Notes: generated by a model from the sequence alone, not told the origin. A stretch of DNA of 64,000 nt from Pseudomonadota bacterium (GCA_016125375.1 WGLU01000006.1:124001-188000), one strand, 5' to 3'; positions 5,816-32,617 are shown, numbered from the stretch's first letter. Numbers and translations are program-made.

Positions 5816-7699
5816 TCAAACCGCTTTTTTCTGTTGCGGCTGTTGGGTGGCGTACGGGCTGTTGGCGGCAGGGGTGTACTCGGGCACCAGTGCGCGCAGC
5901 GCGGCCACGGCTGCTGCCGCATCCTCGGCAGCGCAGGCAGATTTAATCATCGCAAGGTGGTTTTTCAACTCGGTTTTACCCATGCTGCGGGCGGCACCGA
6001 GGAAAATTCCCTCGCGGTGGGTCTTTTTGAGGTTCTCCTCGTCATGGAGCAGTTCCTCGAACAGTTTTTCACCCGGGCGCAGGCCAACTTCGACAATCTC
6101 GATATCCACTTCGGGGATGAGGCCGCTCAGGCGCACCATTTCGCACGCCATATCGTAGATGTTGACGGGCTTGCCCATATCGAGAACAAAAATCTCGCCC
6201 CCTTCGCCCATGGTACCGGCCTGAATGGTCAGCTGTACCGCTTCCGGGATGGTCATAAAGTAGCGGGTCATGCGCTTGTCGGTCACGGTTACCGGACCGC
6301 CGGCGGCAATCTGCGACTGGAACAGCGGCACGACCGAGCCTTTGCTACCCAGCACGTTGCCAAAGCGGACGGTGATATAACGGGTCGGGCCCTCGTGGTT
6401 CTGGCAATAGATTTCGGCCGCGCGCTTGGTTGCCCCCATCACGTTGGTGGGGTTGACGGCCTTGTCGGTACTGATGATGACCATGGTGCCAACCTTGTGT
6501 TTGGCGGCCGTGTCGGCCACGGTCAGGGTACCGAACAGGTTGTTGACGATGCCGTTCAGCGGGTTGGATTCCACCATCGGCACGTGTTTGTACGCGGCAG
6601 CGTGGAAGACGACCTCTGGCGCGAAACGGCTGAATACATTGTCCATGTCGTCCTTGTTGCGGACATCTGCCAGAATGCTGTGACGCTCTGTCTGCGGCGC
6701 AAGACGGGTCATTTCCATGTCGACTTCGTACAGGGCGAACTCGCTGTTTTCGACCATGACCAACTGGCTGCACCCGAGGGCGGTAATCTGGCGGCACAGT
6801 TCGCTGCCGATGGAGCCACCGGCGCCGGTCACCAGCACGCGTTTGCCTTCCAGCATGGCTTTGATGGCGGTCATGTCCAGTTTGACAGGCGGCCGGCCGA
6901 GCAGGTCTTCAATCACCACAGGGCGCAGGTTGGTGGCGCTTTCGCCCTCGGCGAGGTCGGTCACATCCGGCAGGCGCTTGATGGAGAGTTTACGCTTACG
7001 CGCGGTGGCGATCAGGCTTTCAATGCGCAGGTGTTCCTGACGGGTCAGCACGACCATATCCACCTCAACCCCCTTGGCAGCCAGACTGTCCAGCGCGTGG
7101 TCGAGGTTCACAATCGGGCCCAGAACAGGCACGCCGTGCAGGTAACGGCCCTGTTTGTCCTTTTCGTCATCCAGTACGCCCTGGACGTAGAACACCTTGG
7201 GCGACATGCGGTTGGTTTCACGCAGGAAGGCATCGGCGGCCTCGTTGGCGCCAATCAGCAGGGCGTTGATACGGGTCTTGCCGAAGCGCGGCGCGGTGGA
7301 AGCGCTCAACATTTCGCGCACATAGCGGTATGTAAAACGCGTACCGGCAAGGCCAGCCACCTGCAGGAACCACACAATGCCGAACACCATGCGGGGGAAG
7401 TTCTCCAGCCGCGTGGTCATGGTCAAAACCGTCAGGCACACCAGAACGATGACGGTTACAGCCTGTAGAATGCGTACCATCTCGCTTTCGGATGTGTAGC
7501 GCCAGATGCCGCGGTAAAGGCCGAAAATCTTGATAACAATGACGCTGAGCAGTGCATAGGGCAGCGCGTATTTGAGGTTGTGCACCATCACCTCGGGCAC
7601 CTGACCGGCAAAACGCAGGAAAAGAGCAGCGGCAAACGCAACTGCCGACACCAGCAAATCATGGGTTACAATAATGGCCAGTTTTGTCTTTAAGCCCAT
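5816..7699 (-). CDS. WbpM/FlaA1-like membrane UDP-GlcNAc 4,6-dehydratase
   Basis: This 627-residue protein has about four N-terminal transmembrane segments (to about residue 110), a first Rossmann-like CoA-binding domain and a C-terminal SDR dehydratase domain with GAGGSIGSEL. The catalytic region reads STDKAVNPTNVMGATK, with Met instead of Tyr in YxxxK, as in the large membrane WbpM/CapD group. Such enzymes turn UDP-GlcNAc into the 4-keto-6-deoxy sugar that leads to UDP-QuiNAc or UDP-FucNAc. ATG 7699 is chosen because earlier starts lie inside the upstream gene and add a Cys-rich stretch. It follows WbpL- and WbpV-like genes in the same order as in Pseudomonas O-antigen loci. Confidence 0.9.
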   Translation of the reverse strand: MGLKTKLAIIVTHDLLVSAVAFAAALFLRFAGQVPEVMVHNLKYALPYALLSVIVIKIFGLYRGIWRYTSESEMVRILQAVTVIVLVCLTVLTMTTRLENFPRMVFGIVWFLQVAGLAGTRFTYRYVREMLSASTAPRFGKTRINALLIGANEAADAFLRETNRMSPKVFYVQGVLDDEKDKQGRYLHGVPVLGPIVNLDHALDSLAAKGVEVDMVVLTRQEHLRIESLIATARKRKLSIKRLPDVTDLAEGESATNLRPVVIEDLLGRPPVKLDMTAIKAMLEGKRVLVTGAGGSIGSELCRQITALGCSQLVMVENSEFALYEVDMEMTRLAPQTERHSILADVRNKDDMDNVFSRFAPEVVFHAAAYKHVPMVESNPLNGIVNNLFGTLTVADTAAKHKVGTMVIISTDKAVNPTNVMGATKRAAEIYCQNHEGPTRYITVRFGNVLGSKGSVVPLFQSQIAAGGPVTVTDKRMTRYFMTIPEAVQLTIQAGTMGEGGEIFVLDMGKPVNIYDMACEMVRLSGLIPEVDIEIVEVGLRPGEKLFEELLHDEENLKKTHREGIFLGAARSMGKTELKNHLAMIKSACAAEDAAAAVAALRALVPEYTPAANSPYATQQPQQKKAV

Positions 7700-27669: not shown

Positions 27670-27696
27670 TTGACAAAATAAAGCGATGTGTAAAAT
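27670..27696 (+). promoter_or_regulatory. Candidate promoter for the fibre-like gene
   Basis: TTGACA (27670-27675) and TAAAAT (27691-27696) with a 15-base spacer, in the AT-rich gap between the LysR regulator and the fibre gene. The spacing is short. If used, transcription starts near 27703, which argues for the ATG at 27775 over the one at 27700. Confidence 0.35.
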
Positions 27697-27774
27697 TATA
27701 TGGCAATAAATACGAACAATAGTCATATTATGTGTTGTAACCTTGCTTGTGCTGTGTTGATGGAAGCTATTATC

Positions 27775-29427
27775 ATGCATATTCCAGAGCTTTTGAAGTA
27801 TTTATCCGGCCACGGCCGCTCCGTTGTCCGTGCGGGTAAAAGGTGCCATTCCGCCTTTACTAATGCCTATGAGCGGCGCGAGGAGTTTCTGGTTCTGCTG
27901 TTTCTCGTCTTTATCGTGTGGGCATGTTTCATGCTCTACAGTCTGGATGCGTATGGCCAAAGCAAGTTCTTCAGTACGCCCAACCGCGGTGGCGCCGACG
28001 GGGCTAAAAGTCAGGCCATTTTGCAGATGCTGATGAACGAAAACGCTATCCGCAAAGGCGAGACAACAGCCAACGCGGCGAGCGTTACCACGCTGGGTGC
28101 TGCCACCGATGCCAGTATTACCGCACTGAAAGCCGCAACAGATGCCAGCCTGACAACGATTGGCAACTGTGGTACTCAGGGGATGATGTTTGGCCCGGGC
28201 CACGCCCATGCGGACGGTAATGACTGTATCCAGTCTTTTCAGGTTGTCAGCGATGGCAACGTCCTGTTTCAGGCAGGGGCCAAATTTGGTACGTCCACTC
28301 TCTGTGACCCGACGACAGCGGGGACGATTCGCTATAACGGCACTGCCAAGCGCATGGAGTTCTGCAACGGGGATGTTTGGGGCATGCTGGGCGGCAATAC
28401 CGGTTGCTCTATCAATTTTCCTGCTGTCTCTGACGCCAGTCTGGACACATTTTACGACACAACGGATGCCATCTACAGCGGTACAACAACCACGGCTTCA
28501 GTCAATGGCGCGACACCCGCCGTCATCCGACGCAACGGCAGCAATACGGGTATGGTTTCCGGTGTAACGGTCAATCAGGGCAACAGTGTCGGCATTCGGG
28601 GCAAGTCTGCGCCCCAGTTTAACCAGACCGCAAACTTCACACTCGACATTGGCGCTTATACAGCCTGCTGGCAGATTACGACAAAACAGCAGGACGTTCT
28701 GCCGAATGCCTTTAGCTTTAACAGCTTAACGGGACAGGATCTGGATACGCTGGTGGTTTCCAACAGCGTTACGGTTAATGGCTTTGACGGACCGTTAACC
28801 GTATCCGTGAGTGGGCAGGGCGGCCCGCAGCTCAAGATTGGTGGCGGTAGCTGGGCAACCTCCGGCCAGATCAATCCCGGCGACAGCCTGACCCTCCGCG
28901 TGACAACATCACCAAATTACGAAACCAGTTACAGCATATCGCTCGGTCTTGGCGCATTCTCTACAAGTTGGAATGTCACAACCAAACCGGACTGTGTTCC
29001 GGGCAGTTTTGTGGCTACAAGTTGTGGGACGGTCTACACGGTCAACAATGTTCTGCCTACTTGTTCCATTACAGCGGACCTTTCGGCCTCAGGCAGCGGC
29101 GGACGTTGGTGCGACAACCCCGAGTGCTCCGCGAAAAGGGGCGGGCAACGGGGTGACCGTCTGACCTATTCGGGTGTTCTTGGTCCGGGCACCATTCAGG
29201 TTTACGCCAGTTGCGGCCCGGGTGATGGTTGGGGACCCGCATGGTTGAAGCTTGATGGCGTTATCAAGCTACAGGCTGGCCTGGGCGGTGGTGGCAAGGT
29301 GGCACCGGCAGGCGCATCATATATTAACAACGGCGGTGCCGACGGTGGTCACGGTGACGAGGGCTGCTGGAACTGCGGTGGCGGCCAGGCTGCCTCTAAC
29401 GGCTGGGTAACGCTCTCGTGGCACTGA
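27775..29427 (+). CDS. Membrane-anchored fibre-like surface protein
   Basis: The 550-residue product (ATG 27775, GGAAG 8 bases upstream) has a basic N terminus and one transmembrane helix (about residues 37-56), then a large exported region. A helical/Ala-Thr stalk (TDASITALKAATDASLTT) leads to two beta-rich repeats ending in ITTK (to 28686) and NVTTK (28690-28986). The C-terminal 145 residues are Cys-rich and Gly-rich, with paired Cys (CDNPEC, CWNC), ending WVTLSWH. The pattern suggests a type II-oriented stalk with Ig-like modules and a disulphide-stabilised tip. No family recognised. It converges on the Hint cassette with only 12 bases between stops and no terminator. Confidence 0.7.
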   Translation: MHIPELLKYLSGHGRSVVRAGKRCHSAFTNAYERREEFLVLLFLVFIVWACFMLYSLDAYGQSKFFSTPNRGGADGAKSQAILQMLMNENAIRKGETTANAASVTTLGAATDASITALKAATDASLTTIGNCGTQGMMFGPGHAHADGNDCIQSFQVVSDGNVLFQAGAKFGTSTLCDPTTAGTIRYNGTAKRMEFCNGDVWGMLGGNTGCSINFPAVSDASLDTFYDTTDAIYSGTTTTASVNGATPAVIRRNGSNTGMVSGVTVNQGNSVGIRGKSAPQFNQTANFTLDIGAYTACWQITTKQQDVLPNAFSFNSLTGQDLDTLVVSNSVTVNGFDGPLTVSVSGQGGPQLKIGGGSWATSGQINPGDSLTLRVTTSPNYETSYSISLGLGAFSTSWNVTTKPDCVPGSFVATSCGTVYTVNNVLPTCSITADLSASGSGGRWCDNPECSAKRGGQRGDRLTYSGVLGPGTIQVYASCGPGDGWGPAWLKLDGVIKLQAGLGGGGKVAPAGASYINNGGADGGHGDEGCWNCGGGQAASNGWVTLSWH

Positions 29428-29439
29428 TAGCGGGAATGT

Positions 29440-29931
29440 TTAGTTGCCGCCCTTATCCACCACAGGGGCCACTGCTGTGGAGTTGATGATTTGCTGGGCT
29501 GCTTTTTGGGCTGTTTTCTGGGTTTTTCTGGAGCTGGCCCAACGGGCGTCCTGCATGGTGTTCACAATGTTCATCAGGGCGGCTTCCTGTTGGTCGCGGA
29601 ACTCGGCATCGGCCTGTGCCTGCGCCTCGTCAGTCATGGGTACGTACACCACCTGGTCCGGTGAGGCAAAGTGCTGGAGCAGCTGTTGACGGTCAATTGT
29701 CGGTTTGCCCTGGGCTACCAGCTTGTTGTTCAGAATCTGGTAGATGGTGTTGATGTCGCGGTCAGCCTGCATAATTTCCTGCGCCACGTGCATCATCACG
29801 GGCAGGTTGCGCTCGTTGCTGTCCTCGATTGTTTTTTCAATCACGCCCTGCATGGCAGCCTGACCCTGATAATCGGCCGCGTGGGCAGTGGTTGCGCCTA
29901 AACAAAGCAGGCTCAAGATGATGTAACGCAT
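29440..29931 (-). CDS. Small exported helical protein (unknown)
   Basis: A 163-residue protein from ATG 29931, one base after the preceding stop (TAACATG). Residues 1-18 form a Sec signal (cleaved after AHA). The mature part is Gln/Ala-rich and helical, with no Cys and a C-terminal run of Lys/Gln/Ala. It is the fourth gene of the exported cassette and has no recognised family. An extension to 30084 would bury the signal peptide and is rejected. Confidence 0.72.
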   Translation of the reverse strand: MRYIILSLLCLGATTAHAADYQGQAAMQGVIEKTIEDSNERNLPVMMHVAQEIMQADRDINTIYQILNNKLVAQGKPTIDRQQLLQHFASPDQVVYVPMTDEAQAQADAEFRDQQEAALMNIVNTMQDARWASSRKTQKTAQKAAQQIINSTAVAPVVDKGGN

Positions 29932-29932
29932 G

Positions 29933-30409
29933 TTAGCGGTCTCCCCCTGATTGCAGGAAAGGTTGTTGCTGTGCCTCTTTCTCTTTGGCAAGGCGCAGAA
30001 TGTCGGCAATCTCCTGTTGGGAGAAAGCAGTATTCTTGTTCTTGACGTCAATTGCGGCCTTGTCTGTTTCCGTACCGGCATCATGTTGCAGGAAAAGCGT
30101 ACCTTTAGTCGTGTTCACAAAGGTTTTTGCGTCGTTCCACGGCAGGGTTACCCCGATTAGCTGGCAGCAACGCAGCTGGCGTTCTACGGCAACTAGGTTC
30201 AGGGCACGGTCCTGCAGTTCTTTCAGGTAGGCCCGGCGTTGTTGGATAAGGGTGTCCTGATAGGTGGTCTGCCCTTCAACTGCACGCGTGGTGATGATGG
30301 TGTTGACGTGTTGCTGGTTACCGATTTTGTTGGATGTGCCGGTAAACGTCTGCGCCCATGCGGGTTGGGCCGCCAGGGCCAGAACACAGAGGATAAGGTA
30401 TTTGGTCAT
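29933..30409 (-). CDS. Small exported protein with a Cys pair (unknown)
   Basis: This 158-residue protein starts at ATG 30409, with GGAGG 5 bases upstream. A signal peptide covers residues 1-19 (cleaved after AWA). The mature region is helical, with a QQRRAYLKELQDRAL segment and two adjacent Cys (RQLRCCQL, about residue 84). No family recognised. It lies between the Hint gene (11 bases away) and the fourth gene (1 base away), so the genes are almost certainly one transcript. Confidence 0.72.
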   Translation of the reverse strand: MTKYLILCVLALAAQPAWAQTFTGTSNKIGNQQHVNTIITTRAVEGQTTYQDTLIQQRRAYLKELQDRALNLVAVERQLRCCQLIGVTLPWNDAKTFVNTTKGTLFLQHDAGTETDKAAIDVKNKNTAFSQQEIADILRLAKEKEAQQQPFLQSGGDR

Positions 30410-30420
30410 GGCACCCTCCA

Positions 30421-31155
30421 TCAGTCGGTCAGGTTGATGATGCCGGTGGGGTCGTAACCGCCGACCTGCATGCCTGCTGCCACAAAGGTATTGTTGGGCG
30501 ATACAATCAAGTTATGGACGTGGTAGGCACCCTCTGGCTTTGTAACGCTGGCAACGATATGCGTTTTACCGTCCGTCATGGCCAACACATCGCCCGTGGC
30601 CACATCCTGAGCGGATTTAATCGTACCGTCGCTCAGGCGGAATTTGTGTTCCGGCGTTACGTGGATGCCGTCGATGATCATGATGGGCTTGTCCGGTGTC
30701 TCCACGCGCGCCAATACCGTACCGGTGACGGATTTACCGTCTGCCGTCCATGACAGGACTTCCTCGCCTTCCACAATATCTGCAATCCGGCGTTGCGAAC
30801 CGTCGGCCATGGTCACCTCCGTATCGGGCAGGAAACACCCGGTGCGCCCATAGCCCAGCATCTCCTGTTGTGTGACTTTGAGGTACTCCACGACGACGAC
30901 GGGCTTAAAGTTGTCGATAAAGGCTTCAAGGTATTTGATTTCAGCTTCGATGGCGGCAAGGTCTTCCTGCGCTTCCTGCTGCGTCTTGTTATTTACCTCG
31001 GCTGTGTCACCCACTTTGAAGCCATCGCCATTATTAATAACGATTGCATCCCCTGTACCAAGACCGCTGAAAATCTGGCCGGATTTCTGAGGGGTTTGTG
31101 CCACGGCACCCAGTGGTGCCAGTAAAGCCAGAGCTGCGACGATAAAAGACTTCAT
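30421..31155 (-). CDS. Exported Hint (hedgehog/intein) domain protein
   Basis: A 244-residue protein with a Sec signal (1-19), a helical spacer (about 55-100, AAIEAEIKYLEAFIDN) and a C-terminal Hint domain from Cys107. Block A reads GCFLPDTEVTMADGS; block B is VTPEH with His170; the final block is HNLIVSPNNTFVAAGMQVGG. The Cys and the TxxH needed for the N-S acyl shift are present. Where inteins have HN, this has GG, so C-terminal Asn cleavage seems absent. The expected chemistry is N-terminal thioester formation after Gly106, as in hedgehog proteins. It overlaps the upstream gene by ATGA (31152-31155). Confidence 0.82.
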   Translation of the reverse strand: MKSFIVAALALLAPLGAVAQTPQKSGQIFSGLGTGDAIVINNGDGFKVGDTAEVNNKTQQEAQEDLAAIEAEIKYLEAFIDNFKPVVVVEYLKVTQQEMLGYGRTGCFLPDTEVTMADGSQRRIADIVEGEEVLSWTADGKSVTGTVLARVETPDKPIMIIDGIHVTPEHKFRLSDGTIKSAQDVATGDVLAMTDGKTHIVASVTKPEGAYHVHNLIVSPNNTFVAAGMQVGGYDPTGIINLTD

Positions 31156-32450
31156 TGAGCATCCCCCTTTTGGGCGGCTGAAGCAGCCAGAGCCTTGTCA
31201 ATCAGGCCGTACCAGGCATCCAGCACCAGACCGCCGCTCGCTTCCTGCCCGTTAATAAAGGCTGTCGGCGTAAAAAACACGTTGTGGCCGTTCATGAGCT
31301 TATCTCTAGATTCCTTAATATATTTGCTGACGTCCGGCTTACGGGCACAGGTCGCAGCCTCGCGGGTGGCGATACCCAGACTGCCCAGCTGGCGCAGGGT
31401 CAGCGACCACATTTCGGGGTTGGCTTTCCAGTCCTCGTTAGGGTCCAGCCAGACATTGTTAATGGATGCCATGGTGAAGTAACCCTTGAAAAAATCCTCC
31501 TCCGGCAAGCAGTAGAGCAGGCCCAGCACCTCGTAACCGTTGCTGAACCACGGGAAGGGGCGCAGCTCGTAACGCAGCAGACCCTTGCTGATGTACTTGT
31601 CTTTCAGCTTGGGCAGGATGTCCTTGAAAAAGGGGATAATCGTATGGCTTTCCGGAGTTTCGTACTGGATAAGTGTCACGGGCGCGTCCGGGCTGCCGAG
31701 GCCGCGTGCAAACTGTTTGTTAGGGGTGAGTTCAGCCGCACTCAACTGAAGTGGCGCGTCGCTTTGGGAGAGCTTGCGTATGGCAGCGCCCAGCGCATTA
31801 CCGAAAAAGTCTTCTTCTACAATGACTGGAAAATAGTACTGGTTGACGTAAAGCTCTGGCCGGGCGAGCCGGAAAAGCTTCATGTCACGAGCCTTGGCGG
31901 CGTGTTCGGCAATTTGTTTGTCAGTCGTCTGGTCTTTGAGGCAGGCATCAAGCGCGGTTTTATTCATCCCGAACTTTGCCGCCTGGGGGGTCAACCATTG
32001 GCGGATGTCGCCCTTTTCGCGCCATTGGTCCTGAACATCCAACATGCTGCGGACAAAAGGAATGCTATTGCTGTTGGGCAGGCATTGCGCCGTTTTGTAA
32101 ACAGTTACCGAGTTGGCAGACTGGCCCTTGTCACGCAGGATGAAAATAGCTTGCTGGTTGTTCACCGCGGTTTCGACGGTCTTATATTGTTTGTTGAAGA
32201 ATGTTTTTGTAACCGGATCGCCGAGGTCGGCATAAAAGAACACCGCTACCTTGGGGAAGGTAAATACATCGCCTTCGACAATATCCGTTTGCGTCAGCGA
32301 GAGCATGCCGTTCCAGTTAAAATATCCGTGAGCGAAGTAAAACGGCATAAAATCAGGGATATTGGGCTGGCCCGGTTGTTCTTTGGGTTGGGCGTAGGCG
32401 TTGAAGGTGCAGATAAAAAGCAGAAAAAGACCGGAAAAAACACCGCGCAT
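31152..32450 (-). CDS. Exported DsbA-fold protein without catalytic cysteines
   Basis: A 432-residue protein from ATG 32450, with a signal peptide (1-20, cleaved after AYA). Two thioredoxin/DsbA-like halves can be traced: one from about residue 65 (KVAVFFYADLG) and one from about 250 (SPDAPVTLIQYE, then the long helical insert with TPTAFINGQEASGG near 400, the cis-Pro loop). Aligned with DsbA-type PVTLVEY-x4-CxxC, the second half has Ser268-His-Thr-Ile271, so both active-site Cys are gone; the first half also lacks CxxC. It may act as a chaperone or a partner of the Hint protein. It is the first gene of the cassette. Confidence 0.75.
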   Translation of the reverse strand: MRGVFSGLFLLFICTFNAYAQPKEQPGQPNIPDFMPFYFAHGYFNWNGMLSLTQTDIVEGDVFTFPKVAVFFYADLGDPVTKTFFNKQYKTVETAVNNQQAIFILRDKGQSANSVTVYKTAQCLPNSNSIPFVRSMLDVQDQWREKGDIRQWLTPQAAKFGMNKTALDACLKDQTTDKQIAEHAAKARDMKLFRLARPELYVNQYYFPVIVEEDFFGNALGAAIRKLSQSDAPLQLSAAELTPNKQFARGLGSPDAPVTLIQYETPESHTIIPFFKDILPKLKDKYISKGLLRYELRPFPWFSNGYEVLGLLYCLPEEDFFKGYFTMASINNVWLDPNEDWKANPEMWSLTLRQLGSLGIATREAATCARKPDVSKYIKESRDKLMNGHNVFFTPTAFINGQEASGGLVLDAWYGLIDKALAASAAQKGDAQ

Positions 32451-32617
32451 GCAAGCTAAACCCGACTGTTTGTTTGATATATGTATGCAATGATATGCGT
32501 CAGGCTCCACCCCTGTCTATTATTTTATGTTGTTCATTTGGAGCGGTGCGCAAGCCGGTTGGCAGGGCAGAGGCTTTTGGGTAAGGTCTTAGGGCTGACA
32601 TAAAAGAGGCTCCTGCC

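What the first reader, a model, noticed from the sequence alone, without database searches (positions are those of the whole stretch)
27775..32450. Exported Hint cassette facing a membrane-anchored fibre-like protein
Four tightly packed minus-strand genes (overlap ATGA, then gaps of 11 and 1 bases) all encode exported proteins: a cysteine-less DsbA-fold protein, a Hint protein and two small proteins. They converge with a fibre-like gene, 12 bases apart and with no terminator between them. None of the small proteins is recognised. Together they could form a periplasmic autoprocessing or surface-attachment system: a Hint thioester could link or cleave a partner while the DsbA-like protein assists folding of the Cys-rich tip. 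The parts are seen; the joint function is inference.
Basis: partly seen in the sequence, partly recalled or inferred. Interest (0 to 1): 0.72.

Follow-up and report, generated by a model that had tools for sequence, protein, structure and literature searches.

The report
Exported Hint operon beside mosaic fibre
A small-genome alphaproteobacterium carries an operon of four secreted proteins, one holding a self-cutting (Hint) domain, tail to tail with one copy of a multi-copy surface-fibre family whose tips differ between copies; sister fibres carry Hint domains as tips, which links Hint to these fibres although their joint function is untested.

Summary
Four tightly packed minus-strand genes (ATGA overlap, gaps of 11 and 1 bases) encode exported proteins and converge, 12 bases apart and without a terminator, on a fibre gene. 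The DsbA-like protein is not cysteine-less: it is a tandem of two DsbA domains that both lost CXXC but keep their other cysteines. The fibre more likely has a cleaved signal peptide than a membrane anchor.

The fibre is one of about nine paralogues with an invariant mature start (QxKFFS) and unrelated tips, similar in design to Bdellovibrio MAT fibres. Hint is one interchangeable tip: two paralogues end in Hint domains, and in same-order genome G005 two proteins of one array share an N-terminus but only one ends in Hint. The window's Hint keeps Cys1 and TxxH but lacks the terminal His-Asn, like B-type BIL domains, so it should cleave only at its N-terminus.

The cassette recurs nowhere tested: neither small protein had a homologue in 384 other class genomes. 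No held genome shares its genus or family, so near relatives could not be checked. Best reading: accessory module of a mosaic fibre with a self-releasing Hint cap (0.42). New variant of a known kind.

The parts
27775..29427 (+). Fibre gene (550 aa from ATG 27775): signal peptide, invariant QSKFFSTPNRGG start, helical segment, C..QGMMFGPGH..DGNDC module, repeat shaft, variable Cys-rich/Gly-rich tip
   Evidence: ORF; paralogues; shaft matches phrog_4924 short tail fiber, E 1.8e-14
27958..28227 (+). Conserved mature N-terminal region of the fibre (residues 62-151)
   Evidence: invariant columns in alignment A1; used as profile A2
29005..29427 (+). Variable tip of the fibre, unrelated to the tips of its paralogues
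   Evidence: protein identity of about 63-70% to the C4 and C9 187-kb paralogues ends near residue 410; nucleotide identity falls off after about 28889-29057
29428..29439 (.). 12-base convergent junction without a terminator
29440..29931 (-). Small exported protein 2 (163 aa), orphan
   Evidence: no family; no homologue in 384 other class genomes
29933..30409 (-). Small exported protein 1 (158 aa, mature start QTFTG), orphan
   Evidence: no family; no homologue in 384 other class genomes, plasmids or viral contigs
30421..31155 (-). Exported Hint protein (244 aa); its only cysteine is Cys107, the expected Hint nucleophile
   Evidence: Pfam Hom_end_hint E 4.1e-8, above cut-off; Cys count
30457..30837 (-). 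Hint domain (residues 107-233): C1, TPEH, block-F-like VHNLIV..NTFVAAG; terminal His-Asn replaced by Gly-Gly
   Evidence: alignment A3
31152..32450 (-). DsbA-like protein: two thioredoxin/DsbA domains (about residues 50-204 and 233-427), CXXC lost in both
   Evidence: Thioredoxin_4 E 2.2e-23; both halves align to ordinary DsbA of G005/G003; PDB 3f4r match
27670..27699 (+). Promoter-like site in front of the fibre gene (TTGACA-18-AATTAT)
   Evidence: consensus scan only
32490..32519 (-). Promoter-like site in front of the four-gene cassette (TAGACA-18-TATCAT)
   Evidence: consensus scan only

Best explanation
The plus-strand gene makes a secreted, probably surface-displayed fibre of a mosaic family: a constant N-terminal base and shaft with exchangeable C-terminal tips. 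The minus-strand operon is an accessory module of that fibre system, exported to the periplasm or surface. Its Hint protein is a short helical stalk capped by an N-cleavage-only Hint domain. After export, Cys107 would attack the preceding peptide bond (N-S acyl shift), and the thioester would be hydrolysed or taken by a small nucleophile, releasing the roughly 87-residue stalk from its cap. This is analogous to the self-cleaving S74 cap of other fibres and to the Hint tips of sister fibres. The DsbA-like protein would be a redox-dead chaperone or holdase for these exported proteins, and the two small proteins subunits or assembly factors. Shown: gene layout, the paralogous fibre family with swapped tips, Hint as one of the tips, conserved Cys1 and TxxH with loss of His-Asn, loss of CXXC. 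Inferred: self-cleavage, surface location, and joint action of cassette and fibre.
For: Fibre paralogues with the same mature start and different tips; Hint as tip on two of them; a Hint-tipped protein and a non-Hint protein with the same N-terminus, 72% identical over 146 aa, in one five-gene array of exported proteins in G005 of the same order; all five Hint proteins in 12 genomes searched are exported fibre-type proteins or the window protein; an S74-capped exported protein of similar build in G005 (E 2.1e-15); retained C1/TxxH and lost His-Asn, the pattern described for B-type BIL domains (PMC7765530); Cys107 is the only cysteine of the Hint protein; other fibre genes also have exported companion genes beside them, including a companion family shared between this genome and the distant G381.
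Against: The four-gene cassette is known only from this genome: small proteins 1 and 2 have no homologues, and only single DsbA domains match elsewhere. Similarity of the N-termini of the Hint protein and small protein 1 to the fibre family is only suggestive: with free offsets, 3 and 9 of 139 control proteins score as well. Fibre and cassette are on opposite strands with separate promoter-like sites. Both structure models are of low confidence (mean pLDDT 45 and 37) and add nothing.
Confidence: 0.42

Rival explanations
1. Chance neighbours: the cassette is an independent, lineage-specific periplasmic operon (for example envelope quality control) that happens to lie tail to tail with one of about nine fibre genes.
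For: Opposite strands, separate promoter-like sites; cassette absent from all other genomes tested, whereas fibres occur without it; the other DsbA-tandem pair of this genome has no fibre nearby.
Against: Fibre genes with a few kilobases around them cover only a few percent of the genome, so a Hint gene beside one by chance is unlikely (rough estimate of a few percent, made by hand); the other two Hint domains of this genome are fused to fibres.
Confidence: 0.33
2. One reading: the Hint thioester covalently links its stalk to the fibre (or cleaves it) while the DsbA-like protein forms disulfides in the Cys-rich tip.
For: Hint retains the acyl-shift residues; the fibre has many cysteines.
Against: Both DsbA domains lack CXXC, so no disulfide catalysis is expected; nothing shows a ligation partner; hydrolysis is the simpler fate of the thioester.
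Confidence: 0.09
3. Polymorphic-toxin style processing: the Hint domain releases a C-terminal effector, and the cassette encodes toxin and immunity proteins.
For: Many Hint domains elsewhere in the class sit in toxin-like or other large proteins (by eye); weak PT-HINT similarity.
Against: Only about 11 residues follow the Hint domain, so there is no C-terminal effector; Pfam and NCBIfam show no toxin domain (the padloc library was not searched).
Confidence: 0.05
4. Degenerate remnant: the Hint domain lost its C-terminal His-Asn by decay and is no longer active.
For: Terminal His-Asn is missing here and in the two fibre-fused copies.
Against: Cys1, TxxH and an open frame with normal codon use are kept, and B-type BIL domains also lack the C-terminal motif yet are described as cleaving (PMC7765530).
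Confidence: 0.1

Closest known systems
Mosaic adhesive trimer (MAT) fibres of Bdellovibrio bacteriovorus (PMC10769870)
   Same: Many paralogues per genome, signal peptide, constant N-terminus and variable C-terminal tips; an S74-capped exported protein of similar build exists in G005.
   Different: The constant N-terminus here is short and probably helical, not the ~130-aa beta-rich domain of MATs; no sequence match to solved structures; Hint caps; trimerisation and surface display not shown.
B-type bacterial intein-like (BIL) Hint domains (PMC7765530)
   Same: Intein-type Cys1 and TxxH motifs, no C-terminal His-Asn, placed in variable, poorly conserved proteins.
   Different: Sits as a cap on a short helical protein beside a fibre gene, and on fibres; activity not measured.
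Alphaproteobacterial DsbA (for example chain 3f4r_A)
   Same: Thioredoxin_4/DsbA family by sequence; two non-catalytic cysteines per domain are kept.
   Different: Two domains fused in one chain and CXXC lost in both; not a plausible oxidase.
Phage short tail fibres (phrog_4924; cyanophage short tail fibre proteins)
   Same: The shaft repeat matches.
   Different: Chromosomal, with a Sec-type signal peptide; no phage genes recognised around it.

Membership tests
MAT fibres | Signal peptide followed by a constant N-terminal region shared by all paralogues | tested here: met
MAT fibres | The constant region is a beta-rich domain of about 130 aa | tested here: inconclusive
   Low-confidence model shows helices at residues 73-104 and 112-134; the invariant block is shorter
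MAT fibres | Sequence relation to solved MAT structures | tested here: not met
   profile A1 against PDB sequences: no significant hit
MAT fibres | Diverse C-terminal tips on a common shaft | tested here: met
MAT fibres | Trimeric beta-prism fibre, surface display | not testable with these tools
   needs structure determination and microscopy
B-type BIL / Hint | Nucleophilic Cys at the first position and TxxH in block B | tested here: met
   alignment A3, invariant C5, T65, H68
B-type BIL / Hint | C-terminal His-Asn motif absent | tested here: met
   window ends VGG, paralogues VMSF, other genomes VHN
B-type BIL / Hint | N-terminal self-cleavage | not testable with these tools
   needs expression and mass spectrometry
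A-type BIL / intein / PT-HINT | C-terminal His-Asn followed by a C-terminal flanking protein | tested here: not met
   no His-Asn; about 11 residues follow the domain
DsbA oxidoreductases | CXXC active site | tested here: not met
   replaced by non-Cys stretches (DLGDP, ETPESH) in the two domains

The most novel reading that the evidence does not exclude
A bacterial analogue of Hedgehog-type processing for surface fibres: the Hint domain activates the C-terminus of its stalk as a thioester and transfers it to a partner (the fibre or a small envelope molecule), building or anchoring a covalent surface structure.
Probability: 0.07. Interest if true: 0.85.

Novelty: new variant of a known kind. 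Interest (0 to 1): 0.45.

Why it matters
Self-cleaving caps on bacterial fibres are known for the S74 domain; here Hint domains occupy the same C-terminal place in several fibre-type proteins. That gives a concrete, testable role to Hint domains in variable secreted proteins. It also points to a multi-copy, tip-swapping fibre family in Alphaproteobacteria, with possible use in recognising other cells.

Tried and rejected
Recurrence of the cassette: searched with small protein 1 (class, plasmids, viral contigs), small protein 2 (class), DsbA-like (order, class, genome contigs) and Hint (relatives, plasmids, phages, viral contigs); no second cassette. Phage origin: a viral-contig scan with the fibre profile found nothing; only the shaft repeat resembles phage tail fibres. 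Common N-terminal motif for Hint protein, small protein 1 and fibres: it looked strong with positions fixed (0 of 110 controls for small protein 1) but not with free offsets; the offset of 7 for Hint had been chosen after seeing the sequence, so I do not claim homology. Structure prediction of the Hint protein and the fibre: too poor to search with. Genome-level co-occurrence of fibre and Hint (3 of the 10 fibre-matching genomes have Hint; 23 other genomes in the 289-genome sample have it too) was not tested formally, and the two samples differ. In one search one reference gene (acs) was cut out of frame and pooled into the codon reference; the in-frame advantage of the cassette genes is clear but the absolute values are rough.

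Full report
Observation. The four minus-strand genes and their spacing are as described. The fibre gene converges on them with 12 bases between the ends, with no terminator-like site and no unusual RNA fold at the junction. Codon adaptation in frame exceeds all other frames for the four cassette genes. Two statements need correction. The DsbA-like protein has four cysteines after its signal peptide; it is a fusion of two DsbA domains, each of which aligns to ordinary DsbA of the same order, and each has lost CXXC while keeping two non-catalytic cysteines. The fibre's hydrophobic segment ends at a signal-peptidase-like site directly before the conserved QSKFFS start, so a cleaved signal peptide is likelier than an anchor (crude rule, no dedicated predictor available).

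The fibre family. The profile of the fibre N-terminus finds nine places in that genome: C8 (window), C4 256 kb, C9 187 kb, C9 43 kb, C7 92.6 and 94.5 kb, C1 13 kb, C4 12 kb and a fragment at the end of C6. QxKFFS is invariant in the six aligned copies and is read in the C1 and C4 12-kb copies as well. The window, C4 256-kb and C9 187-kb copies are 63-70% identical up to about residue 410 and then diverge: same shaft, different tip. Outside the genome, copies with the same start occur in Telmatospirillum sp. J64-1 and Stappia albiluteola, and close variants (QxKFFA) in genome G381. Weaker matches occur in G003, G005, G087, G105, G201, G240, G321 and G370; some of these cover only a short or shaft-like part and need not be the same family. 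Ten of 385 class genomes match at E <= 0.001.

Hint as a tip. Two adjacent fibres on C7 end in Hint domains; one of them is 61% identical over 289 aligned positions to the non-Hint fibre on C1, before the tip. In G005, of the same order but another family, five exported proteins are encoded in a tight array; the second and fourth are 72% identical over their first ~146 residues, and only the second ends in Hint, with an intact His-Asn. In G087 an exported 821-aa protein with Cys-rich repeats ends in Hint. In a search of 12 genomes (the ten with a match, plus G001 and G002) these four and the window protein are all the Hint domains found. In other class genomes Hint domains sit in many unrelated kinds of proteins, with one exported Cys-rich exception (L110). 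This is the main evidence that the Hint protein of the window belongs with fibres. It is circumstantial, because the relation of its short helical N-terminus to the fibre N-terminus is not established.

Hint chemistry. The window domain keeps the first Cys, TPEH in block B and a block-F-like VHNLIV..NTFVAAG, but the terminal VHN of other members is VGG. The two fibre-fused copies also lack it. B-type BIL domains are described as sharing the intein motifs except the C-terminal one and as cleaving N-terminally (PMC7765530). Cys107 is the only cysteine of the whole protein. From this I infer N-terminal cleavage only, with release of the stalk; nothing here measures it.

The cassette. Small proteins 1 and 2 had no homologue at E <= 0.001 in the other 384 genomes of the class sample; small protein 1 had none in plasmids or viral contigs. 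DsbA matches in other genomes cover essentially one domain only; the own genome has a further tandem pair of such two-domain proteins near C4 303-306 kb, with no fibre nearby. No held genome shares the genus or family, so recurrence among near relatives is untested. Other fibre genes also have exported companions beside them: a family of about 650-aa proteins adjoins the fibres at C1 and C4 12 kb and in the distant G381, and small exported proteins adjoin fibres in G381 and Stappia. Exported companions beside fibre genes are thus a repeated pattern, but with different companions.

Comparison. In design the fibres resemble Bdellovibrio MAT fibres (PMC10769870): paralogous, constant base, variable tip; an S74-capped protein of similar build occurs in G005. 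They are not filed as MATs: no sequence relation to solved MAT structures and a constant region of apparently different kind. Nothing here shows that the organism is a predator.

Verdict. An accessory module for a mosaic fibre is the best-supported reading (0.42), chance neighbours the main rival (0.33). New variant of a known kind; interest 0.45.

Noticed in passing
L010 5753-6346 and ~6523-6550; L027 6564-7232 and ~7335-7362 (G000 contig C9): Two fibre genes each face a divergent ~200-aa tyrosine recombinase, with a near-palindromic core-type site (TGAAACAAAAT-TGGTAA-TATTGTTTCA) between them. With up to 3 mismatches the site occurs at exactly these two places in the genome, and a homologous recombinase (53% identity) lies near the Telmatospirillum fibre.
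   Followed up: partly
L064 9085-11106, L065 3526-5469 and 5474-7465, L061 7246-9150: Family of ~650-aa exported proteins without Pfam match in the two tested, multi-copy in this genome and beside fibre genes here and in distant genome G381.
   Followed up: partly
L098 13841-18343 (G005): Array of five tightly packed exported proteins with repeated N-termini and different C-termini, one ending in Hint.
   Followed up: partly
L009 4135-5175 and L073 8295-9365: VirB11-like ATPase gene (recognised by eye, not searched) near a fibre-type gene in two distant genomes.
   Followed up: no
L061 and L063 (G381), L030 2228-4267 (Stappia): Fibre genes lie near VirD4-like and relaxase-like genes (by eye), which suggests that some travel on conjugative elements.
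   Followed up: no
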